This document shows positions 10,905 through 24,504 of a stretch of 37,055 nt of DNA, piece by piece. The stretch covers positions 1 through 37,055 of the forward strand of contig JAKAED010000019.1 in the NCBI GenBank assembly GCA_021820105.1, read 5' to 3'. Within the stretch, counting starts at the first letter, position 1. Every line of letters starts with the position of its first letter. The stretch comes from Actinomycetes bacterium (GTDB lineage Bacteria; Actinomycetota; Thermoleophilia; Solirubrobacterales; Solirubrobacteraceae). The notes beneath the pieces are model-generated. The model made no database searches. It was not told the origin of the DNA and worked only from the letters and a program-made list of their open reading frames with translations. A program made the position numbers and the translations under genes.

Positions 10905-12305
10905 CTAGGCCGTCGTGGGTGATGCCTGTAGCTCGCGGACCCATTCTTGGGCGCCGACCTGGACGGCGTCCCACGGTGAGCCGAGCGGCGGCGTGTAGGA
11001 GAGGTCGAGGTCGGAGAGTTCGTCGATCGTCATGACGTTGTGGATCGCGGTCGCGGCGATGTCGACGCGCTTGGCGACTTCAGAGCCGAGATGTCCAAGG
11101 AGCTGCAGTCCGAGGAGCCGCCCGTCGCGACGGTCAGCTGTGTAGCGCATCTGGATCGGATGGCTGCCGGGGTAGTAGGCCTTGTGGTCGTCGGCTTGGG
11201 AGGCGACAGTGAGTGGCTCGAAGTCGGCGGCTTGGGCCTCATGGTCGCGCAGGCCGGTGCGGGCGATGACAGTCTCGAAGACCTTGACGACTTGGGTGCC
11301 GAGGCTGCCGACGTACTCGCGGTCGCGGCCGAGCGCGTTCTCGGCGGCGATCCGGCCTTGCTTGTGGGCGGTGGTGCCGAGCGGTAGGTAGGTGGTACCG
11401 AGCAGCTGGTGGTGGGTGGTGACGCAGTCGCCGGCGGCGAACACGTGCGGGAGGTTGGTGCGCATCCGCCGATCGACGGCGATCGCGCCCTTGAACCCCA
11501 ACTCGGCGCCGGCGCCGGCTGCCAGCTCGATGTCGGGGCGCACGCCGACGACGACCAGGACGACGTCCGCCGGGTAGGTCAGGTCGCTGCCGTCGGGACC
11601 GGTGGCCTGGACTGCCAGCGGCGAGCCCGCGGCCGGGTCGGTCTGTTCGATTGCGTTGACCTTGGTGCCGGTGGCGACCGTCACGCCGTTGCGCTCAAGC
11701 TCGGCGTGGACGTGCGCCCCGAGCTCGGGGTCGACGGTCGGTAGTACCTCGGGGAGCTGTTCGAGTTGGGTGACCTGCAGCCCGCGCATCGTCAGGCCTT
11801 CGGCCATCTCCAGGCCGATGTAGCCGGCCCCGACGATGACCCCTCGCTTAATCCCGTCGCGCTCGAGCGTCTTGGTCAGCGCGAAGGTGTCGTCCATCGA
11901 GTGCAGCAGGTGTACGCCGTCATCAGGACCGAGCTGGTCAAGCCCGGTGATCGGCGGACGCACAGACACCGCGCCGGTGCCGACGATGAGTTCGTTGTAG
12001 GCGAGTTCCTCCTCGGTCCCGTCTTTGCTCACGACCAGCAGCTTGCGGGCCTCGACGTCGATCTTCTTCGCGAGGGTGTCGAGGCGTAGGTTCATGCCTG
12101 TTGCTTCGAGGTCGGCGTAGGTGCGGTGCGCGAGGTTGCGCCAGTGCGTGACCTCCCCGGAGATGTAGTAGGGGATGCCGCAGATCGAGAAATTCGGGTA
12201 GGCATCTGCCACCACCACGGTGACGTCTGTGGTGGGGTCGAGTTCGCGGGCGCGTAGCGCGGCGCTGATGCCGGCGTCGCTGCCGCCGATCGCGATCAGG
12301 TGCAT
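10905..12305 (-). CDS. FAD-dependent pyridine nucleotide-disulfide reductase (CoA-disulfide reductase/NADH oxidase-like)
   Basis: A 466-residue flavoenzyme. It has an N-terminal FAD Rossmann site (IGGSDAGISAALRARE, 7-22), the single redox cysteine C42 in FSICGIPYYISGEV as in CoA-disulfide reductase and NADH oxidase, and a second NAD(P)H Rossmann site (GVIVGAGYIGLEMAE). HVFAAGDCV is the FAD motif near the end of the core, and a C-terminal dimerisation domain follows. ATG 12305 is preceded by AGGAG; longer upstream frame is unlikely coding. It is the third gene after arsC and the aquaporin, separated from the latter by 28 bp. Such enzymes keep low-molecular-weight thiols reduced, so supplying reducing power to ArsC or handling arsenic-thiol adducts is a reasonable inference. 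No rhodanese domain is fused. Confidence 0.85.
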   Translation of the reverse strand: MHLIAIGGSDAGISAALRARELDPTTDVTVVVADAYPNFSICGIPYYISGEVTHWRNLAHRTYADLEATGMNLRLDTLAKKIDVEARKLLVVSKDGTEEELAYNELIVGTGAVSVRPPITGLDQLGPDDGVHLLHSMDDTFALTKTLERDGIKRGVIVGAGYIGLEMAEGLTMRGLQVTQLEQLPEVLPTVDPELGAHVHAELERNGVTVATGTKVNAIEQTDPAAGSPLAVQATGPDGSDLTYPADVVLVVVGVRPDIELAAGAGAELGFKGAIAVDRRMRTNLPHVFAAGDCVTTHHQLLGTTYLPLGTTAHKQGRIAAENALGRDREYVGSLGTQVVKVFETVIARTGLRDHEAQAADFEPLTVASQADDHKAYYPGSHPIQMRYTADRRDGRLLGLQLLGHLGSEVAKRVDIAATAIHNVMTIDELSDLDLSYTPPLGSPWDAVQVGAQEWVRELQASPTTA

Positions 12306-12333
12306 CGAGTGGTGTCTCCTGGGTTTGGTTTGG

Positions 12334-13095
12334 TTAGGCGCGCGCGGGTTCTGCGTGCTGGTTGGTGAGCTTGTGGTCGTCGGTTTGGTCGTGGGGCATG
12401 ACCGCGTCAGCGGCCTCCGCGGGCGTGATGTGCGGGTACAGCACACGGATCACGCCGATCGCGAGCGCGCCGCCGACGAGCTGCGCTACGACGTAGGCGG
12501 GGACTGACGCGGGGGCGATCCCGGCGAATGTGTTGGAGAACATCCGGCCGATGCTGATCGCCGGGTTCGCGAACGAGGTGGAGCTCGTGAACCAGTACGC
12601 GGCGCCGATGTAGGCGCCCACGGCGGCGGGTGCCATCGAGGAGCGGTGGCTGCGCGCGAGGGCGAAGATGACGAGGATCAGTCCGAGGGTCGCGACGATC
12701 TCGCCGAGCAGGTGTGCCGGGCTGGCGCGGTGGTGCGCGGCGATGGTCACGGCGCTGAGCCCGAACATCGCGTTCGCGACGATCGCACCGAAGCTACAGC
12801 CGGCGATTTGGGCGGGGATGTAGGCGGCGGTGTCGCGCCATGACAGCCCGCCGAATGTCGCGTCGACGAGTGAGACGACGGGGTTGAAGTGCGCGCCGGA
12901 GACGGGGCCGAACATCAGGATGATCGCGAACAGCCCGGCCGCGGTCGCGGCCGCGTTCTCGAACAGCTCCAGCCCGACATCGTTCGGGGAGAGCTGTACG
13001 GCGGCGATCCCGGAGCCGATCACCAGCGCGGCCAGGAACGCCGAGCCGAGGAACTCCGCGAACAGCCGCCGCCACAGCGACGCTTCTACGCTCAC
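12334..13095 (-). CDS. Aquaporin/MIP channel of the ars operon (AqpS-like)
   Basis: A 253-residue six-helix MIP channel. The first half-helix motif is GAHFNPVVSL, with NPV replacing NPA. The second is FANPAISIGRMF, a canonical NPA. In Sinorhizobium meliloti AqpS, encoded beside arsC, provides downhill arsenite exit in place of an ArsB pump, and later work links it to methylarsenicals. The same neighbours here suggest the same role. Start GTG 13095 overlaps the arsC stop as GTGA, so translation is probably coupled. The cytoplasmic C-terminus is His/Asp-rich (DAVMPHDQTDDHK). Water or glycerol transport cannot be excluded. Confidence 0.88.
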   Translation of the reverse strand: MSVEASLWRRLFAEFLGSAFLAALVIGSGIAAVQLSPNDVGLELFENAAATAAGLFAIILMFGPVSGAHFNPVVSLVDATFGGLSWRDTAAYIPAQIAGCSFGAIVANAMFGLSAVTIAAHHRASPAHLLGEIVATLGLILVIFALARSHRSSMAPAAVGAYIGAAYWFTSSTSFANPAISIGRMFSNTFAGIAPASVPAYVVAQLVGGALAIGVIRVLYPHITPAEAADAVMPHDQTDDHKLTNQHAEPARA

Positions 13096-13775
13096 GCGCT
13101 TCCCACCGGATGCTTGGCGTCCACGCCGGCGGTGTCGGGCAGCAGAGTGGTCAGCAGCTCATGGACGTGTTTGTCGATCTCGTCGCGGATCAAGCGGACC
13201 TGCTCGATCGGCCGCCCCTCCGGGTCGCTGACCTCCCAGTCCTCATAGCGCTTGCCGGGGTAGACCGGGCACGCCTCGCCGCACCCCATCGTCACGACCA
13301 CATCGGCGGCGCGCACGACGATGTCGGTCAGCGGCTTGGGGAACTCGTGCGTGACGTCCAGGCCGACCTCGCTCATCGCCTCGATCACGACCGGGTAGAT
13401 CCGCTCGCCAGGGTTTGAGCCGGCGCATCGCACCCCGAGCCGGTCGCCGCCAAGATGGTGGGCGAGCGCCGCGGCCATCTGGCTGCGGCCGGCGTTGTGC
13501 TCGCACACGAACAAGACCTCTGGGACCGTCTTGGGGGCCAGGCCCTCGACCTGTGCTGCAGCGCCTAGCTGGTCTTTGGCGAAGCGCTCGACCAGCGCGG
13601 GAAAGAACGGCGGCAGGACCGTCGCATGCTCGGTCAGTCGATCCCAAGCGTCATCGACAGCGCGAGCGACGGTCTCCTGTGAGAAGACGCCGTGGTACTT
13701 GGTCGCGAGTCGCCCAACGACGCTCTCAAGCGCGCTGCTCATCGGATCGCTTTTGTGGAACTGCGGGTCCTGCAT
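13092..13775 (-). CDS. arsC: Arsenate reductase ArsC, LMW-phosphatase type with N-terminal helical domain
   Basis: A 227-residue cytoplasmic enzyme reducing arsenate to arsenite. Residues about 10-80 form the N-terminal three-helix domain seen in actinobacterial ArsC. The catalytic P-loop is VCEHNAGRS, with nucleophile C91 and R97. Later cysteines C165 and C169 (TMGCGEACPVYPG) sit where the thioredoxin-linked ArsC class has its resolving pair, so reduction through thioredoxin is likely, though some actinobacterial members use mycothiol. YEDWEVSDP carries the loop acid. ATG 13775 has GGGAGG at a good distance. It is the first gene of the leftward operon, divergent from arsR, with a GTGA overlap into the aquaporin gene. 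Confidence 0.93.
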   Translation of the reverse strand: MQDPQFHKSDPMSSALESVVGRLATKYHGVFSQETVARAVDDAWDRLTEHATVLPPFFPALVERFAKDQLGAAAQVEGLAPKTVPEVLFVCEHNAGRSQMAAALAHHLGGDRLGVRCAGSNPGERIYPVVIEAMSEVGLDVTHEFPKPLTDIVVRAADVVVTMGCGEACPVYPGKRYEDWEVSDPEGRPIEQVRLIRDEIDKHVHELLTTLLPDTAGVDAKHPVGSA

Positions 13776-13812
13776 GAGTGGCCTCCCGGTACGATTGGCC
13801 GCATCCTATCCA

Positions 13813-13848
13813 TTGACAAGCATCACTTCAATTGATACTTGTAGATTG
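13813..13848 (+). promoter_or_regulatory. arsR promoter and ArsR operator
   Basis: TTGACA (13813-13818) is followed by GATACT (13834-13839), a 15-nt spacer, and ATG begins at 13849, so the arsR mRNA is probably leaderless. The promoter contains an imperfect 25-bp inverted repeat, CAAGCATCAC (13817-13826) and TTGATACTTG (13832-13841), with an ATCA-N7-TGAT core typical of ArsR/SmtB sites. Binding there would occlude the -35/-10 region and could also control the divergent arsC operon. Confidence 0.65.
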
Positions 13849-14211
13849 ATGAGCGTCGATTTGCCTGTCCTCGAACTGACCCCCAAGACCAAGCGCCCGG
13901 CCGGCGAGCCGTGCTGTGAGCCGGTCGTCTATCCCGACGTCCAACGCGACCATGCGATCCGGATGGCCGAGGTCGCCAAGGCGCTCGGCGATCCGATCCG
14001 ACTGCAGCTCGTGGATGTGCTGCGCAAGCACGCCGGCAAGGTGTGTGTCTGCGAGCTGGTGCCGCTGTTCGACATCGCCCAGCCGACCCTTTCGCACCAC
14101 CTCAAGAAGCTGCGTGAGGCCGGGATCGTCGCCTCCGAGCGCCAGGGCCTCTGGGCCTACTACTACGTCATCCCCGACGCCCTTAAGGAGCTATCCGCAT
14201 GGCTGAGCTGA
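13849..14211 (+). CDS. arsR: ArsR-family arsenite-responsive repressor
   Basis: A 120-residue winged-helix repressor. Its HTH region contains KVCVCELVPLFDIAQPTLSHHLKKL, with C66 and C68 at the ELCVCDL-type arsenite site. It also has an N-terminal C22-C23 pair; Corynebacterium glutamicum ArsR likewise uses an N-terminal Cys-Cys plus one helix cysteine. Trivalent arsenic would bind these thiols and release the operator. ATG 13849 is chosen because the frame upstream runs through the promoter/operator; the start lies just after the -10 box. The arsM start overlaps its last 13 nt, indicating coupling. Confidence 0.92.
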   Translation: MSVDLPVLELTPKTKRPAGEPCCEPVVYPDVQRDHAIRMAEVAKALGDPIRLQLVDVLRKHAGKVCVCELVPLFDIAQPTLSHHLKKLREAGIVASERQGLWAYYYVIPDALKELSAWLS

Positions 14212-15131
14212 CCACGCCCGAGACCACCACGCCGCAGCCTGCGGCCTGTTGCGCCCCCGAGCAGCAGGCCGACTGCTGCGCACCGGCTGATAAGGCCGCA
14301 TGCTGTGACCCGAGCCACGGCGACGGGTGCGGCTGCGCCGCCGGCCAGGGCACCGACCCGGCCGCCAGCGACATCCGCGAGCAAGTGCGCGAGCGGTACG
14401 CCGCCGCCGCGCTGCAGGTGACGACCACCGATCCGGGCGCCGGGTGCTGCGCGCCGAGCGACACGTTCGACGGCGGCAGCGAAGTGTTCGGCGCCGCCCT
14501 CTACGCGCTCGGGGACCGTGAGCAGATTCCCGATACCGCGGCGCTCGCTTCGCTCGGCTGCGGCAACCCCACCGCCGTCGCCGAACTTCACGAGGGCGAG
14601 ACCGTCCTCGACCTCGGGTCCGGTGGTGGGATCGACGTGCTGCTCTCAGCCAAACGGGTCGGTGAGACCGGGCTCGCGTACGGGTTGGATATGACGGATG
14701 AGATGCTCGCGCTCGCCCGCGAGAACCAGCACAAGGCCGGCGTGAAGAACGTGCAATGGCTACGCGGCCACATCGAAGCGATCCCGCTGCCCGCCGACAC
14801 CGTCGACGTCGTCATCTCCAACTGCGTCATCAACCTCTCAGGCGACAAGCCCCGCGTCATCGCCGAAGCCGCACGCGTCCTGCGGCCCGGCGGCCGGTTT
14901 GCGGTCTCCGACGTGATCGCCGACGAGGACATGGACGACGCGACCCGCGCCGACATGCAGGCATACACCGGCTGCATCGCCGGCGCGCTCACCCGCCGCG
15001 AGTTCGAGCAGATCCTCACGAGCGCCGGGTTCGAGAACGTCGAGATCCAAGAGACCCACCGCGTCCACCAGTACGCCGGCTCGGCGATCATCCGGGCGCA
15101 TGTGCCGGCAGGCGCCGCCGCGGGTAGCTAA
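14199..15131 (+). CDS. arsM: Arsenite S-adenosylmethionine methyltransferase with Cys-rich N-terminal extension
   Basis: A 310-residue cytoplasmic enzyme methylating As(III). The SAM motif is VLDLGSGGGIDVLLSAKRVG (about 136-155). The conserved arsenic-binding cysteines are C121 (SLGCGNPT), C209 (SNCVINL) and C259 (YTGCIAGAL). A further pair, C83-C84, lies before the core. Unusually, residues 17-46 carry four cysteine clusters (C17/18, C26/27, C35/36, C44/46), two of them CCAP. This extension is not part of the catalytic core and could bind or relay As(III). ATG 14199 has AAGGAG at good spacing inside the end of arsR. The product is methylated arsenic, which may be volatile or exported by neighbouring transporters. 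Confidence 0.93.
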   Translation: MAELTTPETTTPQPAACCAPEQQADCCAPADKAACCDPSHGDGCGCAAGQGTDPAASDIREQVRERYAAAALQVTTTDPGAGCCAPSDTFDGGSEVFGAALYALGDREQIPDTAALASLGCGNPTAVAELHEGETVLDLGSGGGIDVLLSAKRVGETGLAYGLDMTDEMLALARENQHKAGVKNVQWLRGHIEAIPLPADTVDVVISNCVINLSGDKPRVIAEAARVLRPGGRFAVSDVIADEDMDDATRADMQAYTGCIAGALTRREFEQILTSAGFENVEIQETHRVHQYAGSAIIRAHVPAGAAAGS

Positions 15132-15151
15132 TCGCGCTCCGGATCTGACTG

Positions 15152-16396
15152 ATGACCGCGCGGCGCCCAACGCGCGCCGCGCGGACCAGCCCGAAGCCAG
15201 TTCTCAGCCGGTCTTGGATCAGCACGCTTGGCCTGGTCACGATCGTCGCCTATGGGGTCGCGTACTACTCCTTCACCGCGCTGATCGACCCGATCAGGCA
15301 CACCACGGGCTGGAGCACAACCGCGCTTGGCGCGACCTTCAGCGCGGTGCTCGTCATCGGCGGCATCGGCGGCCTGTTCGGTGGACGGCTCGTTGACCGG
15401 GTTGGCACCCGACCGGCCTTCCTCGTCGTGGGCACCATCGGCGCCGCCGCCATCGCCGCCGCGTCTGTATGCAACGGACTGGTCGCGTTCGCTGCGCTCT
15501 ACGCCCTCGGCGCGGGGGCGATCTCGGCGCTCGGGTACTACCACGTCACCCAACCCGCCGCGATCCGAGCCGCACCCGACTACCCCGAACGCGCAGTGGT
15601 CCGCCTCACGATCTTCGGCGCATTCGCCAGCCCCATCTTCATTCCCCTCACAACCTGGCTGGTCCACGAAACCGGCTGGCGCGCCACGCTACGCATCCAG
15701 GCGCTACTCACCGCGGCCGTGTTCCTCATCGCGGCGGTCACACACAACACCACCAGTAAGAACGAGCGCGCGGATGCGTCGCGTTCCGGTCGGCGGAGTC
15801 ACACGCGCCTGGCGCTCACGACGGCCTGGCGAAGCCAGGGCGTGCGCCGCTGGGTGCTCGCGTCAGTGATCAGCGGCGCCGCGATCGACGTCATTCTCAC
15901 CTACCAAATCCCGATCATGGTCGCTGCCGGACTACCAGCCGGAGCCGCCGCGACCATCGCCGGCCTCCGCGGCTTCGCCCAGCTCGGCGGCCGCCTACCA
16001 CTCTCACCAGTGCTCACCAAACTCGGCGCCCGGACGACTATCGTGACCGCCCTAGCGCTCGCCCTGGCCGGCGCCCTGCTGCTGCTCGCCAGCCGTCACC
16101 TCGTGCCAGCGATCGGCTACAGCCTGCTCGCCGGCGTCTCACTCGGCGCGATCTCCACCCTCCAGGGCATCTACACCAACGAGCTCGTCGGCAACGAGAA
16201 CCTCAGCCTGCTCATGGGCGCCCAGCAAGCCGTCTTTGCGGTCGGCAGCGCCCTGGGCCCCGTGATCGCCGGAGTGATCTTCCAAGCCGACAACAGCTAC
16301 ACGCCCGTGGTGCTGATCACCACTGCCGGTCTTCTCGTCTCAGCCGTCATTCTCGCTGGCGGACGATCGACCCTGGCGATCAGCACGATCACCTAA
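15152..16396 (+). CDS. MFS transporter of the ars locus, candidate arsenical exporter
   Basis: A 414-residue major facilitator with about 12 hydrophobic helices and an MFS-A-like loop GGRLVDRVGTR after the second helix. A basic, poorly conserved central loop near residues 205-225 separates the halves. It lies 20 bp after arsM and 24 bp before the second regulator. It is not obviously ArsJ, since no GAPDH partner is present, and it is neither Acr3 nor ArsB. Position in a locus without a known pump makes it a candidate exporter of arsenite or methylarsenicals, but other substrates are possible. No cysteine-rich segment is present. Confidence 0.8.
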   Translation: MTARRPTRAARTSPKPVLSRSWISTLGLVTIVAYGVAYYSFTALIDPIRHTTGWSTTALGATFSAVLVIGGIGGLFGGRLVDRVGTRPAFLVVGTIGAAAIAAASVCNGLVAFAALYALGAGAISALGYYHVTQPAAIRAAPDYPERAVVRLTIFGAFASPIFIPLTTWLVHETGWRATLRIQALLTAAVFLIAAVTHNTTSKNERADASRSGRRSHTRLALTTAWRSQGVRRWVLASVISGAAIDVILTYQIPIMVAAGLPAGAAATIAGLRGFAQLGGRLPLSPVLTKLGARTTIVTALALALAGALLLLASRHLVPAIGYSLLAGVSLGAISTLQGIYTNELVGNENLSLLMGAQQAVFAVGSALGPVIAGVIFQADNSYTPVVLITTAGLLVSAVILAGGRSTLAISTIT

Positions 16397-16420
16397 TTCA
16401 ACGCCCGTTAGGATGTAGCT

Positions 16421-16774
16421 ATGTCTGGAGATCGCTGCGATCTGCTCTGTCTGGACCTGCCACGCGCTGAACGGCTACGTGCGCAGCGAACCGATCTCGC
16501 TACGGCAGAGCAGGCAGCGTTGCGCGCCAAAGCACTCGGTGATCCCACCCGGCTGACGATCGCATTAGCACTGCGCGACGGCGAGGAGCTGTGCGTCTGT
16601 GACCTCAGCTGGGTCGTCGAGCGCAACGAGAATCTCGTCTCCCACCACGTCCGGCTGCTGCGCACCGCCGGGCTGGTCAGCTCCCGGCGAGACGGCAAGA
16701 TGGTCCTCTACTCGCTCACCGACGCAGGCCGAGCGCTGCTAGAGGCTGTGGTCGAGCCGCGAGCTTTCGCATGA
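16421..16774 (+). CDS. ArsR/CmtR-like metalloregulator
   Basis: A 117-residue winged-helix repressor of the ArsR/SmtB superfamily. It has an N-terminal C-x3-C (DRCDLLCLDL) and the helix motif EELCVCDLSWVV, a pattern closer to CadC/CmtR Cd/Pb sensors than to the first ArsR here. N-E-N-L-V-S-H-H-V-R is the recognition helix. A -10-like TAGGAT (16409-16414) lies 6 nt before the ATG, so it may have its own leaderless promoter besides read-through from arsM-MFS. Its stop overlaps the next start as ATGA. It probably controls the CDF-like transporter; the inducer (As, Cd or Pb) cannot be settled from sequence. Confidence 0.85.
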   Translation: MSGDRCDLLCLDLPRAERLRAQRTDLATAEQAALRAKALGDPTRLTIALALRDGEELCVCDLSWVVERNENLVSHHVRLLRTAGLVSSRRDGKMVLYSLTDAGRALLEAVVEPRAFA

Positions 16775-17511
16775 GCCCGGTCGAGTTGCCTGTCGTCATG
16801 AGCGCGCCGGCGGTCCCCGCCGACCACAGCGCTCAGCAGCCGGACGAGTCGTGGCTGCGGGATGCCAGGCGCGCACGGACGCTGTCCTGGGCATCGCTGG
16901 CCTGGATGACCGTCGAAGGCGTCGTCGGTTTGATCGCCGGTCTGGACGCCAACGCCCTGAGCGTGATCGTGTGGGCCGCCTCATCGTTCGTCGAGGGCCT
17001 CGCGTCGATGATCGTGATCTGGCGGTTCAGCGGCTCACGGACGATGTCAGCATCCAGCGAACGTGTCGCCCAGCGCCTCGTGGCCGGCTCGTTCTTGTTG
17101 CTGGTCCCGTTCTTTGTCTATGAAGCGATCCGCAGGCTGATCGATGGCAGCGACACGACCAGCAGCGTCCTCGGGATCGCGGTCACGGCCTCGGCGATCG
17201 TGCTGATGCCAGCACTCGGCCGCGCCAAGCTGCGCCTCGGTCAGCGGCTCGGGTCCGGCGCCACCGCCGGCGAGGGCGTCCAGAACCTGATGTGTGCGCT
17301 GCAGGCCACGGCGGCATTGATTGCCCTGGTCGGCGCTTCCGCCGGTCTGGCGGTGATCGACCCGATCGCCGCGCTTCTCATCGCCGCAATCGCGGTCAAG
17401 GAGAGCGTCGAGCTCTGGCAAGGAGAAGCCGATGACTGCTGCGCGCCGATCGGCTTCGGCGACCCAGCCGGCTACGCCTGCAGCTGCGAACACGGCTGCG
17501 AGTGCTGCTGA
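16771..17511 (+). CDS. CDF-like six-helix transporter with Cys-rich tail
   Basis: A 246-residue membrane protein with the six-helix layout of cation diffusion facilitators but no C-terminal cytoplasmic metal domain. The usual H/D ligands are not evident. Helix 2 reads VWAASSFVEG where D-x3-H-x3-D-type residues are expected, and helix 5 reads EGVQNLMC. The last about 26 residues contain seven cysteines, including CCAP, CSC and CECC. The start (ATG 16771) overlaps the upstream regulator's stop. Thiophilic cargo such as As(III), methylarsenite, Cd or Pb is inferred from the tail and regulator; it is unlikely to be an ordinary zinc exporter. Confidence 0.75.
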   Translation: MSPVELPVVMSAPAVPADHSAQQPDESWLRDARRARTLSWASLAWMTVEGVVGLIAGLDANALSVIVWAASSFVEGLASMIVIWRFSGSRTMSASSERVAQRLVAGSFLLLVPFFVYEAIRRLIDGSDTTSSVLGIAVTASAIVLMPALGRAKLRLGQRLGSGATAGEGVQNLMCALQATAALIALVGASAGLAVIDPIAALLIAAIAVKESVELWQGEADDCCAPIGFGDPAGYACSCEHGCECC

Positions 17512-17571
17512 GCCTCGCCCTCGTCGGCCCCGGTGCGCCGGATCGGGCGAACGCCACCCGGCGCGAGCACA

Positions 17572-17614
17572 CGAGCTGGAACAGCGCAGCGCGACGTTGC
17601 GCTGTTCCAGCTCG
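17572..17614. terminator. Perfect 17-bp inverted repeat after the CDF-like gene
   Basis: CGAGCTGGAACAGCGCA (17572-17588) and its exact reverse complement (17598-17614) flank a 9-nt loop, 60 bp after the end of the ars operon and 15 bp before the YhcG-like start. No T-run follows on either strand. It is probably a transcription stop or RNA-processing hairpin between operons, but a dyad operator is possible. Confidence 0.55.
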
Positions 17615-17628
17615 CCACAATCACCGTG

Positions 17629-18751
17629 ATGACCGATCACCTCCCGTCGGGCGCTCTCGGCCGTGGCTCGCAGGATTACGGCGCGTTTCTGGCTGACGCG
17701 AAGCGGCGGATCCAATCCGCGCGGGCACGCGCGGCGCGCGCCGTGAACGCCGAACTGATCGGCGTGTATTGGTATCTCGGGAGCGAGATCCTCGTCCGCC
17801 AGGACGCTGAGGGCAGCGGACGGGGGCGCGGCGGTACGCGCGTGATCTCGCGGCTGTCAGCCGATCTACAGGCAGCCTTTCCCGAAATGGGCGGCTTCTC
17901 AGAGCGCAACCTCGAGTACATGCGCAAGTTCGCGGGCGTCTGGCCTGACCCCGCAATCGCGCAGCACGTTGCTGCGCTATTGCCCTGGGGCCACAACGCT
18001 GGATAAGGTCAACGACCGCGCGGAGCTTCTCTGGTATGCCGAGCAAGCCGTCGAGAACGGTTGGACCCGCAAGCTGCTCGACCACCACATCAGCACCCGC
18101 CTCTATGCCGCCCAGGGGGCGGCGATCACGAACTTCGCCGACCGGCTGCCTGAGCTCGAGGCACGGGCCGCACAGCAGATCACACGCGACCCGCTGGTGC
18201 TCGATTTCATCCAGGTCACGCCCGACAGCAGCGAACGAGACATCGAGCAGGCGCTGGTCCGCGAAATCCAGGAGTTCATGGTCCGCCTCGGCAAAGGGTT
18301 CCTCTACGCCGGCCGCCAGCGCCGTGTTCGAGTCGGCGAGCGGGATTTCTTTCTCGACCTGCTCTTCTACCACCATCCCACCCGGCGCTGGATCGTGATC
18401 GAACTGAAGGTCGGCCGGTTTGAGCCCGAGTACGTAGGGAAACTCAACTTCTACGTCAACGCCGTCGACCAGCAGGTCGCCAGCAGCGAAGATCAAGCGA
18501 CGATCGGAATGCTGCTTTGCGCCAGCCGCGACGAAGCGGTGGTGCGCGTCACGCTACAGGGGATCGAGCGCCCGCTGGCGGTCGTCCGCTACTACACCAG
18601 CGGCAATCGGCTTGACGTCGAATCAGATTCCGAAGCGTCCGTATCGGCCGGGATGCATGGCGAACTTGACCAGATCCGGGAAGTCGAAGAGCGCCTCGCA
18701 ACCTGGGCAACGGAACGGATCGCGAGCCTCGAACAGCCCGAAGCTGACTGA
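17629..18751 (+). pseudogene. YhcG-type PD-(D/E)XK nuclease (DUF1016), frameshifted
   Basis: The gene is split into two frames. From ATG 17629 to stop 18006 it reads a DUF1016 N-terminal domain (VNAELIGVYWYLGSEI, GGFSERNLEYMRKF, LLPWGHNA). The match continues one base later in frame 2 from about 17996 (LDKVNDRAELLWYAEQA) to stop 18751 with the PD-(D/E)XK half: DFFLDLLFYHH then IVIELKVGRFEPEYVGKLNFY. The expected joint PWGHN-x-LLDK is interrupted at about 17993-18000, equal to one extra base or two lost. Family members are nucleases often found near restriction or mobile-element genes. Because both halves look undamaged, the shift is recent, a sequencing error, or tolerated by recoding. Confidence 0.85.
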
Positions 18752-18996: not shown

Positions 18997-19377
18997 GTGC
19001 GCATGCCACGCAAGATCGCAGTCCCTGCCGAGCAACTCGATCGACTCAAGGATCTCTACAACCAGGAGCGCGAGGCGCTCGTCGCACTAGCGCACGCTGA
19101 GGAGACGGTCGGCAGCGCTGAGCAGGACGTCGCCGTCGCACAAGAGGCGCTCAGGGAGGCGCAGGCTGGCGCCGACGGCGCCTATCAGGCGCTCGCCGCA
19201 CTAGTCGGCACGAGTCTGGCAGCGGAACTGACTGGCCGCGGGAAGACCGGGAAGCGCAGCTCGCGACCAACCGTGCCTGGCGGCCGCGCGACGGAGCGGG
19301 AGCGGAGCCGGGCGCCGGAGGACGGGAGTGACAGTGGCGACGTGTCGCCTGGCGCACTGGGAGCCGTGGCCGCATGA
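18997..19377 (+). CDS. Coiled-coil protein, first gene of PP-loop operon
   Basis: A protein of 126 residues from GTG 18997, or 124 from ATG 19003; AAGGAG (18987-18992) serves either. Residues about 10-75 are a heptad-rich Ala/Glu/Gln helix beginning AVPAEQLDRLKDLYNQERE. The rest is basic then acidic and low-complexity, probably disordered. I recognise no family. Its stop overlaps the start of the PP-loop gene as ATGA, so the two are likely made together and may interact. Confidence 0.65.
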   Translation: MRMPRKIAVPAEQLDRLKDLYNQEREALVALAHAEETVGSAEQDVAVAQEALREAQAGADGAYQALAALVGTSLAAELTGRGKTGKRSSRPTVPGGRATERERSRAPEDGSDSGDVSPGALGAVAA

Positions 19378-20315
19378 GTCGGAATATCGAATACGCGGAA
19401 GCGCGCTCCGAGAAGGCACGGAGTGCCGCTACGAACGATTCGGCCGAAGCCGAGTTGCACGCGGGCAGCCGCGGTCCCGCGAGTGGAGCATCAGTGGCGC
19501 CAGAACCTGCACAACCTCTGCGGCTGTTCTCGTATGGGGGTGGCGTGCAGTCCACAGCGGCGCTCGTTCTCGCCGCGCACGGCAAGCTCGACTTCCGAGT
19601 CTTTCTGTTTGCGAACGTTGGTGATGACTCTGAGCATCCCGCGACGATCGAGTACGTGAAGTCGGTCGCCGTGCCGTTCGCGGCTGAGCACGGCATCGAG
19701 CTGTCAGAAGTGACGCGTGGGGGTGTCAACCCGACGCTGATGACGAAGATGAAGCGGCTCGAGAGTTCGCTGCCGATCCCGGTCAGGATGGATCAGACCG
19801 GCAAGCCTGGCCGCCGCTCCTGCACCCAGGACTACAAGATCATGCCGCTGGCGCGGGAGGCGAAGCGGCGCGGTGCGACGCCCGAGAGTCCTGCTCAAGT
19901 TGGCCTGGGCATCAGCTTCGACGAGCTTGAGCGGATGCGCTCCGCGGTCGATCCCCGGATCCCGTGGCAGCGACGTCACTACCCGCTCGTCGACATGGGC
20001 GTCACCCGCGCCGAGTGCATCCAGATCATCGCGCGCGCCGGCATTCCCGTGCCGCCGCGCAGCGCCTGCTACTTCTGCCCGTTCCATTCCGGCGAGGAGT
20101 GGCGCCGGCTCCAGCGCGAGACGCCTCAGCTCTTTGAACGTGCGTGTGACCTTGAGGAACTGCTGATCGAGCGCCGCACCCGACTCGGGAGAGGGGCCGT
20201 GTACTTCACCAACCAGGGCGCTCGCGAAGGCGCGACGCTGCGCGTCTTACACGCCCATGAACAGCTGACCTTCGCAAGTGACGCGACCTGCGATGGCGGC
20301 CACTGCTTCACGTGA
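19374..20315 (+). CDS. PP-loop ATPase, PAPS-reductase-like family
   Basis: A 313-residue protein whose residues about 48-60 (LRLFSYGGGVQST) form a PP-loop, the ATP-pyrophosphatase motif of the adenine nucleotide alpha-hydrolase/PAPS-reductase superfamily. Cysteines lie in RRSCTQDYK, in SACYFCPFH (C-x2-C) and in the C-terminal CDGGHC, a set that could hold an iron-sulfur cluster or zinc. True sulfate-assimilation enzymes occur with cys genes, absent here. Relatives in mobile DNA include DndC-type DNA thiolation proteins and uncharacterised phage proteins. A role in nucleic acid or small-molecule modification, or defence, is therefore plausible but not shown. The N-terminal about 45 residues are low-complexity. 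It overlaps the genes on both sides. Confidence 0.8.
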   Translation: MSRNIEYAEARSEKARSAATNDSAEAELHAGSRGPASGASVAPEPAQPLRLFSYGGGVQSTAALVLAAHGKLDFRVFLFANVGDDSEHPATIEYVKSVAVPFAAEHGIELSEVTRGGVNPTLMTKMKRLESSLPIPVRMDQTGKPGRRSCTQDYKIMPLAREAKRRGATPESPAQVGLGISFDELERMRSAVDPRIPWQRRHYPLVDMGVTRAECIQIIARAGIPVPPRSACYFCPFHSGEEWRRLQRETPQLFERACDLEELLIERRTRLGRGAVYFTNQGAREGATLRVLHAHEQLTFASDATCDGGHCFT

Positions 20316-20533
20316 TGTGCTGGCGTGAACGTGTCTACGCGCACCTGCAGAGCGCGATCGTGGAGCTGGAGTGCGCTGTTGCCGAGATGCCGGTGAGTTA
20401 TGAGCGGTTGCTGCTCGATCGGGCACTACGGACTTGCACCTTGTCATTCAGGGAGTGCACCCGGAACCTGGACGTGCTCACGGCCCGTGGACGGGCCAGT
20501 GAGGTGGAACGCTCTCCGGGGGCTCGGCCATGA
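20315..20533 (+). CDS. Small hypothetical protein, third gene of PP-loop operon
   Basis: 72 residues from ATG 20315, whose first base is the last base of the preceding TGA; GTG 20312 is one codon longer. It contains a helical segment (RVYAHLQSAIVELECAVAEM) and three cysteines (one more in LRTCTLSFREC). I recognise no family. It is supported mainly by the unbroken chain of start/stop overlaps across this operon. Confidence 0.5.
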   Translation: MCWRERVYAHLQSAIVELECAVAEMPVSYERLLLDRALRTCTLSFRECTRNLDVLTARGRASEVERSPGARP

Positions 20534-20766
20534 GCTGGGTCGTCGTGGTCAGCGAGGAACGGAACGACCAGCTGACCACGACCCCGGCCGTCAACTACGT
20601 GAGCCCTCCACACCAGGCTCTTGAGGAGGCCCAGAGTCTCGTCGTGCTGCTGAGCGGAAGCTGGCCGACAGGTTCAGGGCCGTGGTGCAAGGCGATCGCA
20701 GGCGGACGACGCACCGTCGAGCTGCGCTGCCACGAAGGACAGCACAGCTCAACTCCTCCTTCCTAG
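20530..20766 (+). CDS. Small hypothetical protein, last gene of PP-loop operon
   Basis: 78 residues, starting with a beta-strand-like MSWVVVVSEERND and ending in a basic, His/Cys-containing tail. ATG 20530 overlaps the previous stop as ATGA. Its stop TAG shares the palindrome CTAG (20763-20766) with the stop of the convergent regulator gene. No family recognised. Confidence 0.45.
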   Translation: MSWVVVVSEERNDQLTTTPAVNYVSPPHQALEEAQSLVVLLSGSWPTGSGPWCKAIAGGRRTVELRCHEGQHSSTPPS

Positions 20767-21107
20767 CGCCAGTCGGATCGGTAGCCGGCCACGAGCGGGC
20801 GATCATGGCCATCAGGCAACGACTCGATGCCTGTCTGTGTAAGGCGGAAGCACAGGGTGCTCTCCATCAGCCCGCGCTGCTCCAGCTCCATCATCCGTTC
20901 CAGCAGAGCGACCAGGTCTACGTCGCGACGCCGTAGCTGGTAGCGGAGTTCGTGCTCGGTGATGTGCAGGCCGCCGCGGTCGACGACCTCGAGGATCGTC
21001 CGATCAACGGTGTCCGCGTTCGTCCGCTCGGGTGAAGTTCCGCCGCGCCGCGAGCGCGTCACCGACCGGGTCCGTCGACTCTGTCGTTGCTTTGTCTGGG
21101 TACTCAT
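20763..21107 (-). CDS. Winged-helix-like small regulator
   Basis: 114 residues. The first 30 are basic and probably disordered (STQTKQRQSRRTRSVTRSRR). The rest resembles a winged helix: TVDRTILEVVDRGGLHITEHEL, a second helix with RDVDLVALLERMMELEQRGL, and a strand-turn MESTLCFRLTQTG. ATG 21107 is fixed by AGGAGGT 9 nt upstream. It is convergent with the PP-loop operon and could regulate it. Family assignment is by pattern only. Confidence 0.6.
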   Translation of the reverse strand: MSTQTKQRQSRRTRSVTRSRRGGTSPERTNADTVDRTILEVVDRGGLHITEHELRYQLRRRDVDLVALLERMMELEQRGLMESTLCFRLTQTGIESLPDGHDRPLVAGYRSDWR

Positions 21108-21140
21108 CGAGGGGTTACCTCCTGATGGTGGTTTGTCGAA

Positions 21141-21170
21141 GGCCGTCAGTTGCTGCAACCACTGACGGCC
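21141..21170. promoter_or_regulatory. Strong hairpin between two small minus-strand genes
   Basis: GGCCGTCAGT (21141-21150) and ACTGACGGCC (21161-21170) pair perfectly, and TTG/CAA extends the stem into the loop. It lies between the 70-aa gene and the winged-helix gene, about 20 nt before the latter's Shine-Dalgarno. There is no T-tract on the minus strand. It may attenuate or stabilise the downstream message. Confidence 0.6.
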
Positions 21171-21204: not shown

Positions 21205-21417
21205 TCAGGTCAGGGCGTCCCGGCCGTACAGGGCCTCGACTCGCTCGCGTAGTTGGGTCGTCCAGCGGATCGAGTGATCCGTCCTGGGCAGCGAGTCGAC
21301 CAGGTCGCCGATCAGCTCTCGGACTGTCAGCGAGCCGAGCGCCGTCGATGGCACCTCGTCGATGGGGCCGTAGCTGACCAGCAGCGCCAATAGCTCAACT
21401 GCCTGCCTATCCGTCAT
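21205..21417 (-). CDS. Small hypothetical protein (70 aa)
   Basis: A 70-residue mostly helical acidic protein (RQAVELLALLVSYGPIDEVP, VRELIGDLVDSLPR, QLRERVEALYG). GGCGGAGGAG abuts the ATG at 21417; the spacing is short. It is divergent from the next gene across a dyad-rich spacer and may be co-transcribed with the winged-helix gene. No family recognised. Confidence 0.5.
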   Translation of the reverse strand: MTDRQAVELLALLVSYGPIDEVPSTALGSLTVRELIGDLVDSLPRTDHSIRWTTQLRERVEALYGRDALT

Positions 21418-21450: not shown

Positions 21451-21475
21451 TGCTAATATGCTATCATGTTAGCAT
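21451..21475. promoter_or_regulatory. Dyad operator overlapping a leaderless start
   Basis: TGCTAA (21451-21456) pairs with TTAGCA (21469-21474), and nested inside it ATGCTA (21458-21463) pairs with TAGCAT (21470-21475). The GCTA unit occurs three times. TATCAT (21462-21467) can serve as -10, 6 nt before ATG 21474, so a bound regulator would cover both promoter and start codon. This AT-rich patch stands out in GC-rich surroundings. Confidence 0.55.
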
Positions 21476-22109
21476 GTCTACAAGTGAACACGTCGGCTTG
21501 TGGGATCTGCTCGACCAGCGCGCGCGGCTGCGTTCGATCTGGCAGGCGAGCGGAGGGGAGCACGACCGACGGGTGATGGACGCCGCCTGGTCGATTGCGA
21601 CCACCCACCCTGGCGGCCTCTCTGACGATCCCGCCCAGGGTTCTGCCCCGGGGCACGGACGGCTGTGTGAGCCGACGATCCTGATCTGCCATTGGCTCCC
21701 GGCCGATGGCGAGGACTACTGGTCGATGAAGGATCACCTTGGCTACCGCGGCGCCTGCCTTGGCTGTGGCTGGGTCGGCGACCAGCCGCGCAGAGGCCGT
21801 GGCGCGGAGAACCTCGCGGTCGAGGACGCCCATGACCACACCCATCCGGGCTGGCGGGAGATCCCCGTCGTCGGGGCACCGCCGAGCCTGGAGAGCCCGG
21901 CCTCCTACAAGCGGCTGGTCGCTCGCTGGTATCAGCGCTGGGGTCACCTGTTGCCCGAAGGTTGGCTCGATCGCGGCGGCCCGGTCAGGACCGCGCGCTC
22001 GCCGATGGCGGGCCGTCACGTTCCGGGTCGTGCGCCCGGTGGCGGCTACGACCTTGCCGCCGATCAGGGCGTGCGAGAACTCGAGGGAGGTCAGCTATGC
22101 CTGCTGTGA
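21474..22109 (+). CDS. Hypothetical protein with putative zinc motif (DUF6349-like)
   Basis: 211 residues. The central part reads HLGYRGACLGCGWVGD, then VEDAHDHTHPGWREIPVV: a C-x2-C and a His cluster that could bind one zinc. This arrangement resembles the actinobacterial mobile-element family I know as DUF6349, an identification from memory. The N-terminus (LWDLLDQRARLRSIWQASGG) is helical. ATG 21474 lies 6 nt after a -10-like box inside a dyad operator. Function is unknown. The next reading frame begins 13 nt before its stop. Confidence 0.65.
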   Translation: MSTSEHVGLWDLLDQRARLRSIWQASGGEHDRRVMDAAWSIATTHPGGLSDDPAQGSAPGHGRLCEPTILICHWLPADGEDYWSMKDHLGYRGACLGCGWVGDQPRRGRGAENLAVEDAHDHTHPGWREIPVVGAPPSLESPASYKRLVARWYQRWGHLLPEGWLDRGGPVRTARSPMAGRHVPGRAPGGGYDLAADQGVRELEGGQLCLL

Positions 22110-22345: not shown

Positions 22346-22711
22346 GTGACCAGCTCCAGCCCGACACTGCTCACTGCAGACGAAGCCGCGAAGTTGGCCC
22401 GCTGCTCGGTTACGACAGTGCGCCGCGCGTACACCAAGGGCGCGCTCGTTGCCTACCGTCGGCGTGGATCTCGGGCCGTAGTCTTTGACGACCGGGATGT
22501 GGTCGCTTGGGCGCAGGGTGAGCCGCTCGCGCCGCCAGCATCGAACGCGCCGGCCAAAGCCGAGCGTGTCCGCGGGGCCCGTCTGCCGAAGGCGCGCGGG
22601 AAGGCGATGGGTGCGGCGGCGCCCCAGAGTCAGCCTCCTCAGCCGCGCGTAGACATATCGGTCGCCGCACTCGGTGCTCGCAGGGCATCGCTGTCTGGAT
22701 CACAGGTCTAG
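22346..22711 (+). CDS. Excisionase-like helix-turn-helix protein
   Basis: 121 residues from GTG 22346. Residues about 7-60 match the MerR/excisionase HTH_17 pattern: LLTADEAAKLARCSVTTVRRAYTKGALVAYRRRG, then VVFDDRDVVAWAQGE. The tail is Pro/Ala-rich and basic. It ends 10 bp before the integrase start, the usual place for a recombination directionality factor. A minimal 11-codon frame (ATG 22314) ends in TGA overlapping this GTG and could couple translation. The start is not certain because the frame is open upstream. Confidence 0.75.
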   Translation: MTSSSPTLLTADEAAKLARCSVTTVRRAYTKGALVAYRRRGSRAVVFDDRDVVAWAQGEPLAPPASNAPAKAERVRGARLPKARGKAMGAAAPQSQPPQPRVDISVAALGARRASLSGSQV

Positions 22712-22721
22712 CGACGCGACC

Positions 22722-24161
22722 ATGCAGAAGCCCTGGAAGAAGACTGGCGGTTGGCCTTACAAGGGGCCGCGTGGTAAGAGCTGGCAGCTCGGCTACCGTG
22801 ACCACGAGGGTCGCGTCCGCGCCAAGAGCTTCAAGACCCAGGCTGACGCCGGCGAATGGTCGAAGGGATATGTCAAGGCCGACCAGCAGGACCGGCTCCG
22901 GGAGTTCCTTCTAGGCCCCGAGGCAGCCGCGAAAGGAGACGCCACACCCCTCTCTGAGTTGATCGTCGACTGGCTGGCGACCGACGCTCACCCAGACTCA
23001 CCCGGCGGCCTCGCCCGGAGCACATGGGACAGCTACCGATCTATGGCATCGCGGCACATCATCGGCAACCCGACCGTGCGAGAGATGAAGAAGACCGGCG
23101 AGATCGTCGAGGTCGAGCCTGCGGTCAAGCCGCTCGGCGAGAAGGACGGGTACGCAATCGGCGCCATCCCGGCCGTCCAGTTCGAGGAGCCGGACGTGCT
23201 CAAGCGCTGGGTCAATGCGATGCGCAAGGCGGGCGTCAACCCGCCGACCGAGGCGCGAGTGTGGAAGGTGCTGTCCTCGGCACTGTCATGGGCCGTCGAG
23301 GACGACCGCTGGCCGATCGCAGCCAACGGATGCCTGGCCATGCAGCGTAAGCGGGGCATGCGTCGATCCTCTCGTCGCGCCGGTACGGGCGCGGCGCCCG
23401 TGACGACATCGGGCAAACGTCGCGACGATCTTGCTTCCTGGGCTCTGTCGCCGCTTGCGGTCGAGCGCATCCGCCTCATCATGCTGCAGCGACTGGAGCA
23501 GCGCCCGCCACTGCTCGCCCTACGAGACGCCACGGTCGTCTCCGTCCAGTACGGCTTAGGCATGCGCAACCAGGAGGTCTGGGCGCTCCCAATCGGCGGC
23601 GTCGCCGGCCGCCGTGCTGCGGTCCGCGACGTCCTCAGCTACGGCGAGCTCGACAAGGGCAAGACCGAGGACGCCACCAGCCCGAACCGCCGGCCGCCGA
23701 TCGACTCGCTGCTGGCCGACGATCTGACCGCCTGGGTGGCAGCCCTCGAAGCGCATGGCTATCCGATCGCCAAGGACGACTTCCTGCTGCGCGGAGATCT
23801 GGGCGGACACGGCGCCCCCGACGGCCACATGACCGGCAACCAGGCACACAAATGGCCGGGCCGGTACTTCACACCGGCGGTCCGCAAGGTCGCCGAGCTC
23901 TGGCCCGAGGAGCACGGCGACATCCTCGGCGCGACGCCGTACTCATTGCGGCGCGGAATGATCTCGCTCCGCATCCGCGCCGGCGAGGACCGTCAGGCGA
24001 TCGCAAAGCAATGCGGCACCAGCGTCGAGATGCTGGAGCGCAGCTACTCGTTCGTGATCGAGGACCTCGAGGACGAAGGCCCCAAGCCGGCAGAGGAGGA
24101 ACGCCTCCATGCCAGACAACTCGCGCTCGCCGAGCGCGGCGGACGGCTCAAGGCCGCCTGA
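22722..24161 (+). CDS. int: Tyrosine recombinase/integrase with atypical catalytic box
   Basis: A 479-residue site-specific recombinase. It has an N-terminal DNA-binding domain (GKSWQLGYRDHEGRVRAKSF, about 19-38), a core-binding helical domain (about 75-200) and a catalytic domain. R282 (GMRNQE) is the first arginine, R410 and R411 (PYSLRRG) fill the H-x-x-R box, and Y442 (ERSYSF) is the nucleophile. The two usual histidines are replaced: Y407 in the first box and T433 (CGTS) where GH(S/T) is normal. ATG 22722 was chosen as the first codon after the excisionase gene. It ends 49 bp from the tRNA-Thr gene and points towards it, marking the element's right end. Confidence 0.9.
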   Translation: MQKPWKKTGGWPYKGPRGKSWQLGYRDHEGRVRAKSFKTQADAGEWSKGYVKADQQDRLREFLLGPEAAAKGDATPLSELIVDWLATDAHPDSPGGLARSTWDSYRSMASRHIIGNPTVREMKKTGEIVEVEPAVKPLGEKDGYAIGAIPAVQFEEPDVLKRWVNAMRKAGVNPPTEARVWKVLSSALSWAVEDDRWPIAANGCLAMQRKRGMRRSSRRAGTGAAPVTTSGKRRDDLASWALSPLAVERIRLIMLQRLEQRPPLLALRDATVVSVQYGLGMRNQEVWALPIGGVAGRRAAVRDVLSYGELDKGKTEDATSPNRRPPIDSLLADDLTAWVAALEAHGYPIAKDDFLLRGDLGGHGAPDGHMTGNQAHKWPGRYFTPAVRKVAELWPEEHGDILGATPYSLRRGMISLRIRAGEDRQAIAKQCGTSVEMLERSYSFVIEDLEDEGPKPAEEERLHARQLALAERGGRLKAA

Positions 24162-24210
24162 CGCCGTGAACCGCAGCGCCCCCAACGGCGCTATCGAGGC
24201 GCACAGAGAG

Positions 24211-24283
24211 AGCCGACGCCGGGACTCGAACCCGGGACCCCCACTTTACGAGAGTGGTGCTCTACCAGCTGAGCTACGTCGGC
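24211..24283 (-). tRNA. tRNA-Thr(CGT)
   Basis: A full 73-nt cloverleaf on the minus strand. The acceptor GCCGACG/CGTCGGC, D-stem GCTC/GAGC, anticodon stem CCACT/AGTGG with loop CTCGTAA (anticodon CGT) and T-stem CCGGG/CCCGG with TTCGAGT all pair perfectly. The discriminator is U and no CCA is encoded. It lies between the integrase end and a truncated copy of itself, so it is either the regenerated attachment site or a tRNA brought by the element. Confidence 0.95.
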
Positions 24284-24358
24284 AGGTGCCGCGAGCAAGC
24301 GTAGCCGACCGTCTCGGCACTCGCTCACGCCGCCGGGCTGCAGCCGGTGCAGCGGCAT

Positions 24359-24404
24359 CTGCTTCGGAATTTGCTGCACCATTGCAGCACCAAAGCGAGC
24401 GTAG
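24359..24404. repeat. GCTGCA/TGCAGC repeat cluster near attachment site
   Basis: The interval between the two tRNA copies contains TGCTGCA-ccat-TGCAGCA, a perfect 7-bp inverted repeat near 24382-24399, plus further TGCAGC/GCTGCA units around 24340-24360. Repeats like these beside an integrase core could be arm-type binding sites for integrase or excisionase. This is inferred from position only. Confidence 0.35.
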
Positions 24405-24466
24405 AACCCGCGAAGACGGCTTATTGGCTGCAAACCGTCACATTCCTGCCGACCGGGGCACATTCG

Positions 24467-24504
24467 TTACGAGTGAAGTGCTCTACCAGCTGAGCTACGT
24501 CGGC
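24467..24504 (-). pseudogene. Truncated tRNA-Thr 5' half (putative att junction)
   Basis: 38 nt copy the 5' half of the tRNA at 24211-24283. The first 26 nt (acceptor arm to D-arm) and the 7-nt anticodon loop CTCGTAA are identical, while the intervening stem strand is CTTCA instead of CCACT. The copy then stops matching. Around the loop TTC...GAA forms a short dyad, the structure expected at the crossover of an integrase that uses the anticodon loop. It reads as the displaced host half after integration, although a decayed tandem tRNA is possible. Confidence 0.75.

What the first reader, a model, noticed from the sequence alone, without database searches (positions are those of the whole stretch)
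18997..20766. Uncharacterised four-gene operon around a PP-loop/PAPS-reductase-like protein
Four genes are joined by overlapping stop/start codons (ATGA, TGATG, ATGA). They encode a coiled-coil protein, a PP-loop ATPase with Cys motifs suited to a cluster, and two small proteins. They sit in mobile DNA with no sulfur-assimilation genes. Such tight coupling suggests one complex, possibly for nucleic-acid modification or defence.
Basis: partly seen in the sequence, partly recalled or inferred. Interest (0 to 1): 0.65.

Follow-up and report, generated by a model that had tools for sequence, protein, structure and literature searches.

The report
Mobile-element PP-loop sulfur-type enzyme operon
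A mobile DNA element in an actinobacterium carries four overlapping genes built around an enzyme of a widespread but unstudied phage family that resembles DNA-sulfur-modifying proteins; the enzyme family is real and interesting, but its three small partner genes are a local peculiarity and not a conserved machine.

Summary
In detail: four + strand ORFs (18997-20766) overlap by ATGA, TGATG and ATGA. A same-genus relative (L150) keeps all three overlaps, with dN/dS 0.1-0.5, so all four are genes. They lie in an integrative element (DUF6349, excisionase-like HTH, integrase, tRNA-Thr). The second gene encodes a PP-loop protein of the phage 'PAPS reductase' family (PHROG_424), about 50% identical to relatives in actinobacterial elements and viral contigs. 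Six cysteines are near-invariant in 142 relatives, including a pair at the very C-terminus. It is not assimilatory CysH (no ECGLH; the host's CysH-like gene lies elsewhere), nor SspD or DndC, though its cysteine plan matches SspD. A sister clade sits, with an HTH gene, in SspABCD phosphorothioation loci that have their own SspD. The 'four-gene complex' reading fails: genes 1 and 3 were found only in this genus, gene 4 is a free-standing small family, about 150 PP-loop relatives lack all three, and the same-genus relative has lost the PP-loop core while keeping the other three. Most likely: a sulfur-handling PP-loop enzyme acting on nucleic acid for the element, with lineage-specific neighbours. 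Its chemistry is untested.

The parts
18997..19377 (+). Gene 1: predicted coiled-coil protein with a disordered-looking tail (GTG 18997 or ATG 19003)
   Evidence: ORF; 81% aa identity to L150, dN/dS about 0.32; found only in this genus among 146 family genomes, apart from one weak match
19374..20315 (+). Gene 2: PP-loop protein, phage PAPS reductase-like family, 313 aa
   Evidence: PHROG_424 E 7.5e-31; PADLOC SspD 50 bits; AF2 PP-loop fold, pLDDT 86
19530..19553 (+). Nucleotide-binding loop S53-YGGGVQS60
   Evidence: S53, G55, G57, Q59, S60 conserved at 94-98% in close relatives
19815..19838 (+). R148-x-C150-T-x3-K155 motif, first proposed cluster cysteine
   Evidence: conserved in 114 of 114 close relatives; aligns with SspD R-W-C-T-K-N-L-K
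20067..20078 (+). C232-Y-F-C235 motif, proposed cluster cysteines
   Evidence: near-invariant; aligns with C-Y-F-C of SspD
20289..20315 (+). C-terminal Cys pair C306-DGGH-C311-F-T, then stop
   Evidence: C306 and C311 invariant in 142 relatives; pattern at the very C-terminus in 111 of 114
20315..20533 (+). Gene 3: 72-aa protein of unknown family
   Evidence: 81% aa identity to L150, dN/dS about 0.48; only two genomes of 146
20530..20766 (+). Gene 4: 78-aa protein, Y-x-SPP...GPW...AGG-R-x-V-x-L family
   Evidence: 86% aa identity to L150, dN/dS about 0.21; relatives in 20 of 146 family genomes
20763..21158 (-). Convergent ORF, 114-131 aa, part of the module shared with L150
   Evidence: 79% aa identity to L150 in the same order
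21205..21417 (-). 70-aa ORF, part of the module shared with L150
   Evidence: 84% aa identity to L150
21438..22109 (+). DUF6349 protein of the element (start may be 21474)
   Evidence: PF19876 E 6.4e-39; 82% aa identity to L150
22346..22711 (+). HTH_17 excisionase-like protein
   Evidence: PF12728 E 8.9e-7; phrog_66
22674..24161 (+). Integrase of the element
   Evidence: phrog_1 integrase E 1.5e-15
24210..24283 (-). tRNA-Thr(CGT), probable attachment region
   Evidence: ARAGORN; 27-bp repeat at 24478-24504

Best explanation
Gene 2 is a mobile-element copy of a large, uncharacterised PP-loop family carried by phages and actinobacterial integrative elements. Proposed working: the PP-loop domain binds a nucleotide and activates the target; C150 (R-x-C-T-x3-K) with C232 and C235 hold a metal site, most likely [4Fe-4S]; the flexible C-terminal Cys pair (CDGGHC) is a swinging arm that takes sulfur from a host cysteine desulfurase and delivers it to the active site. 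The likely target is nucleic acid of the element or the host, which could help the element to enter a host or to exclude competing DNA. Genes 1, 3 and 4 are co-expressed neighbours specific to this genus, not obligatory subunits. Shown: family, predicted fold, cysteine conservation, context and lack of conserved partners. Inferred: cluster, sulfur relay, nucleic-acid target and benefit.
For: PHROG_424 E 7.5e-31. All 40 aligned members hit PADLOC SspD, best 6.7e-23; blastp to a true SspD gives E 1e-14 with R-x-C-T-x3-K and C-Y-F-C aligned. True SspD also ends in a Cys pair. Predicted fold nearest to the [4Fe-4S] sulfur enzymes LarE, TtuA and NcsA and to PAPS reductases, with scores that are close together. 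hhalign to DndC probability 75%, to CysH 0.3%. A sister clade of 24 loci sits beside Ssp genes. Relatives lie in integrative elements and viral contigs. SspA binds SspD as a likely sulfur donor (PMC7188994); DndC has a three-Cys [4Fe-4S] centre plus a Cys dyad (PMC10853773).
Against: No substrate, cluster or modification was measured. The nucleotide loop is S-Y-GGG-V-Q-S, closer to the CysH-type loop with Q-S than to the SGGKDS of SspD and DndC. The window protein branches outside the Ssp-linked clade on a long branch. The host shows no SspB and no DndC, in an 89% complete assembly. Methyltransferases are not clearly enriched near viral relatives: 7 of 269 near against 7 of 577 far genes.
Confidence: 0.45

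Rival explanations
1. An atypical sulfonucleotide (APS or PAPS) reductase that supplies reduced sulfur to the host or the element; the terminal Cys pair does the job of the ECGLH tail.
For: Glutamine in the nucleotide loop as in CysH; PAPS reductases are among the best fold matches; cysteines plus a C-terminal Cys tail resemble the plan of APS reductases; phage copies were called assimilatory in PMC2920897.
Against: No ECGLH in any of 114 relatives; profile match to CysH negligible; the host's CysH-like gene is elsewhere; no sulfur-assimilation neighbours; one clade is lodged in SspABCD loci.
Confidence: 0.2
2. The four genes encode one obligate complex, for example a defence or modification machine.
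For: Three overlaps kept in two genomes and purifying selection on all parts.
Against: Partners absent from about 150 PP-loop loci; gene 4 lives alone elsewhere; L150 keeps genes 1, 3 and 4 without the PP-loop core; overlap is common in such DNA.
Confidence: 0.12
3. A counter-defence or superinfection-exclusion protein that acts on the host's phosphorothioation or sulfur-relay machinery by mimicking SspD or DndC and binding the cysteine desulfurase, without modifying nucleic acid itself.
For: SspD-like cysteine plan, carriage by phages and elements, presence beside a separate true SspD in Ssp loci.
Against: Near-invariant catalytic-looking residues and cysteines in 142 relatives suggest an active enzyme; no Ssp or Dnd found in the host.
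Confidence: 0.13

Closest known systems
Phage 'phosphoadenosine phosphosulfate reductase' family, PHROG_424 (for example Mycobacterium abscessus prophage PAPS reductase-like proteins)
   Same: Significant similarity over the catalytic domain, same R-x-C-T-x3-K and C-x2-C, C-terminal Cys pair, carried by mobile DNA
   Different: About 30% identity to the cultured-phage members; this subfamily ends CDSGxCxT, most distant phage members CEGMCGV or CDEGMCGV; the window copy has an extra N-terminus of about 45 residues
SspD of SspABCD DNA phosphorothioation
   Same: PP-loop protein, C-Y-F-C, R-x-C-T-x3-K, terminal Cys pair, blastp E 1e-14
   Different: 50 bits against about 400 for true SspD; GGGVQS loop in place of SGGKDS; no SspA, B or C beside it; in sister loci the family member is present in addition to SspD
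DndC
   Same: PP-loop protein, R-x-C-T-x3-K; hhalign probability 75% over 134 columns
   Different: Shorter, different loop, no DndB, D or E found beside it; no DndC-model hit for the window protein
CysH (APS/PAPS reductase)
   Same: Related fold, glutamine in the nucleotide loop, cysteines plus a C-terminal tail
   Different: No ECGLH; profile match negligible; not in a sulfur-assimilation locus

Membership tests
PHROG_424 phage PAPS reductase-like | Profile match to the family | tested here: met
   E 7.5e-31, residues 50-267
PHROG_424 phage PAPS reductase-like | Shared cysteine plan with C-terminal Cys pair (defined here from 142 relatives) | tested here: met
SspD | Match to the SspD model at the level of true SspD | tested here: not met
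   50 bits, profile 80-201 of 277, against 395-402 bits for true SspD
SspD | Encoded with SspA, SspB and SspC | tested here: not met
   none among the window ORFs scanned; no SspB in G000, while the same search finds it in two control genomes; the assembly is 89% complete
SspD | Cysteines R-x-C-T-x3-K, C-Y-F-C and terminal pair | tested here: met
DndC | Match to TIGR03183 or the PADLOC DndC models | tested here: not met
   no TIGR03183 hit in G000; window protein not matched by DndC models
CysH | C-terminal catalytic ECGLH | tested here: not met
   0 of 114 relatives; present in CysH relatives of the same class
CysH | Pfam PAPS_reduct (PF01507) match | tested here: not met
   window protein no hit at E up to 1; 3 of 40 relatives match weakly
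PP-loop (N-type ATP pyrophosphatase) fold | Fold | tested here: met
   AF2 pLDDT 86; Z about 12 (rmsd 3.6, 163 aligned) to a PAPS reductase and similar to NcsA
[4Fe-4S] sulfur transferases (TtuA, NcsA, LarE) | Bound [4Fe-4S] cluster | not testable with these tools
   conserved C150, C232 and C235 only suggest it
DNA phosphorothioation system | Phosphorothioate in DNA | not testable with these tools
   needs mass spectrometry

The most novel reading that the evidence does not exclude
The Cys-tailed PP-loop proteins are stand-alone, element-borne enzymes that put a new sulfur-containing modification on DNA (or tRNA) without the rest of a Dnd or Ssp machine, and one clade was recruited, together with an HTH gene, as a second modifier inside SspABCD defence loci.
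Probability: 0.13. Interest if true: 0.78.

Novelty: new member of a known kind. Interest (0 to 1): 0.4.

Why it matters
Phage 'PAPS reductase' genes are common and often filed as metabolic genes; I found no functional study of one in the papers searched. The data here (terminal Cys pair, SspD-like cysteine plan, missing CysH motif, and a clade lodged in SspABCD loci next to a true SspD) argue against the metabolic label and give a specific, cheap test: Fe-S and persulfide chemistry and nucleoside mass spectrometry. They also show that tight gene overlap in mobile DNA is weak evidence for a complex.

Tried and rejected
1) Conserved four-gene module: rejected by neighbourhood clustering, tblastn, a gene-4 HMM and family-wide genome searches. 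2) Assimilatory CysH: rejected. 3) Membership of SspD: first suggested by the PADLOC hit and the Ssp loci; dropped when a true SspD at about 400 bits was found in the same loci. 4) DNA-methyltransferase enrichment near viral relatives: crude motif count, 7/269 near against 7/577 far, not convincing. 5) Structure of gene 4 from two sequences: pLDDT 45, discarded. 6) Promoter and terminator scan: nothing above chance. 7) DUF4007 search of the host by Pfam was uninformative as no control rang; repeated with SspB and positive controls. 8) The only clear PDB sequence relative was 'PptA' (21fy_C), E 0.013 with one sequence and 1.8e-6 with the profile; no relevant paper on it was found. 9) The L094 and L139 rows in the tree are true SspD copies picked by length, so their long branch is an artefact of gene choice. 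10) L150 and L154 are the same sequence, so the loss of the PP-loop core is one case only.

Full report
Observation. The four ORFs and their overlaps are as described. Gene 1 may start at GTG 18997 or ATG 19003; gene 3 starts at ATG 20315. The single-sequence coding signal is good for genes 1 and 2 and weak for 3 and 4, but comparison with L150 (MAG LSA2.bin53; identical over the shared stretch to G020, which is listed as the same genus) shows purifying selection on all: dN/dS about 0.32 (gene 1), 0.09 (last 40 codons of gene 2), 0.48 (gene 3), 0.21 (gene 4). All three overlaps persist there as ATGA, TGATG and GTGA.

A natural deletion. L150 lacks window 19399-20184, the PP-loop core, and is left with a 47-aa in-frame remnant that keeps the start and the C-terminal tail, while genes 1, 3 and 4, the convergent ORF, the 70-aa ORF and DUF6349 follow in the same order. 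This is one genome at low coverage, but it shows that the neighbours can persist without the enzyme.

Setting. Downstream lie DUF6349, an HTH_17 excisionase-like protein and an integrase, then tRNA-Thr(CGT) at 24210-24283, with a 27-bp repeat of its 5' part at 24478-24504. Upstream lie arsenic-related genes and a TrwC relaxase. L150 has the same module with another integrase. By inference the operon is part of an integrative element.

The PP-loop family. No Pfam family; PHROG_424 'PAPS reductase' E 7.5e-31; PADLOC SspD 50 bits. Eighty viral loci were kept (94 found) and 71 genome loci hold relatives, the best about 50% identical. In 142 full-length relatives C150, C215, C232, C235, C306 and C311 are invariant or nearly so. 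The proteins end in a Cys pair: CDSGxCxT in this subfamily (111 of 114 by pattern), CEGMCGV or CDEGMCGV in most distant phage members. The AF2 model (pLDDT 86) has a PP-loop fold with a low-confidence, probably flexible tail; the nearest solved folds are LarE, TtuA, NcsA and PAPS reductases with close scores.

Which enzyme is it like? CysH relatives from the same class carry ECGLH; no close relative here does, and the profile match to CysH is negligible against 75% probability to DndC. The host's CysH-like gene is on another contig. Against true SspD the window protein gives blastp E 1e-14 with R-x-C-T-x3-K and C-Y-F-C aligned, and SspD also ends in a Cys pair (C-S-V-C-H-L). The nucleotide loop differs: GGGVQS against SGGKDS, a CysH-like trait that keeps the sulfonucleotide-reductase rival alive.

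Link to phosphorothioation. In 24 loci of one clade, mostly Streptomyces, the PP-loop gene lies beside SspA and SspB genes, commonly with a helicase, a GHKL ATPase, a PLD protein and an HTH gene. In three loci extended further, a large SspC-like ORF and a true SspD complete the set, and L094 shows SspA, SspB, SspC, SspD, HTH and then the PP-loop gene. The protein is therefore an accessory second PP-loop protein there. Whether this arrangement has been described I could not establish; the two literature searches aimed at it turned up no title or abstract that mentions it. The window protein branches outside this clade, and SspB is not found in its genome although the same search finds it in two controls. 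The M. abscessus prophage study already noted that phage PAPS reductase-like proteins resemble DndC (PMC8092301); a Burkholderia study called them assimilatory (PMC2920897).

The partners. Gene clustering puts genes 1, 3 and 4 only in the window and L150; tblastn and a gene-4 HMM find none beside the other relatives. Among 146 family genomes genes 1 and 3 occur only in G000 and G020, apart from one weak match to gene 1. Gene 4 has relatives in 20 of 146 genomes, usually in a chromosomal setting without the PP-loop gene, sometimes coupled to other genes of mobile DNA. Overlapping neighbours are common: 49% of adjacent same-strand pairs in these loci. The operon is real, but the conserved complex is not supported.

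Judgement. Family, predicted fold and cysteine plan are well supported. A sulfur relay onto nucleic acid is the likeliest mechanism, but it is inferred by analogy with SspD and DndC (PMC7188994, PMC10853773).

Noticed in passing
L094 6093-8798; L241-L243; 24 loci such as L116: SspABCD loci of Streptomyces and relatives carry, besides true SspD, a conserved pair of HTH protein and Cys-tailed PP-loop protein, often with a ResIII helicase, a GHKL ATPase and a PLD protein.
   Followed up: partly
L150 7989-8132: The same-genus element has lost the PP-loop core in frame (786 bases) but kept start, tail and neighbouring genes.
   Followed up: partly
window 20530-20766; L180-L191, L193, L194: Gene 4 defines an apparently unnamed small-protein family (Y-x-SPPQ...GPW...AGG-R-x-V) scattered through the bacterial family, mostly as a solo chromosomal gene.
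   Followed up: partly
window 17533-18751: A DUF1016/YhcG nuclease-like gene is split over two overlapping frames (17533-18006, 17969-18751): frameshift or sequencing error; the second part matches the PADLOC candidate PDC-S02.
   Followed up: no
window about 21455-21480; L150 about 9274-9301: A 28-bp perfect palindrome (TAGACATGCTAACATGTTAGCATGTCTA) overlaps the start of DUF6349 in L150, divergent from the 70-aa ORF; partly decayed in the window. Possible operator.
   Followed up: no
window 24210-24504: tRNA-Thr(CGT) next to the integrase, with a 27-bp repeat of its 5' part about 200 bases further on; the left end of the element was not found.
   Followed up: partly
L218 2353-3219 (G000:C8): The host genome has a second, different PP-loop gene on a phage- or plasmid-like contig, two genes from a cytosine-methyltransferase-like gene.
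   Followed up: no
window 10905-17511: Arsenic-related cargo: low-molecular-weight phosphatase-like protein, aquaglyceroporin-type channel, ArsM-like methyltransferase, MFS/ArsK-like pump, ArsR-type regulator.
   Followed up: no
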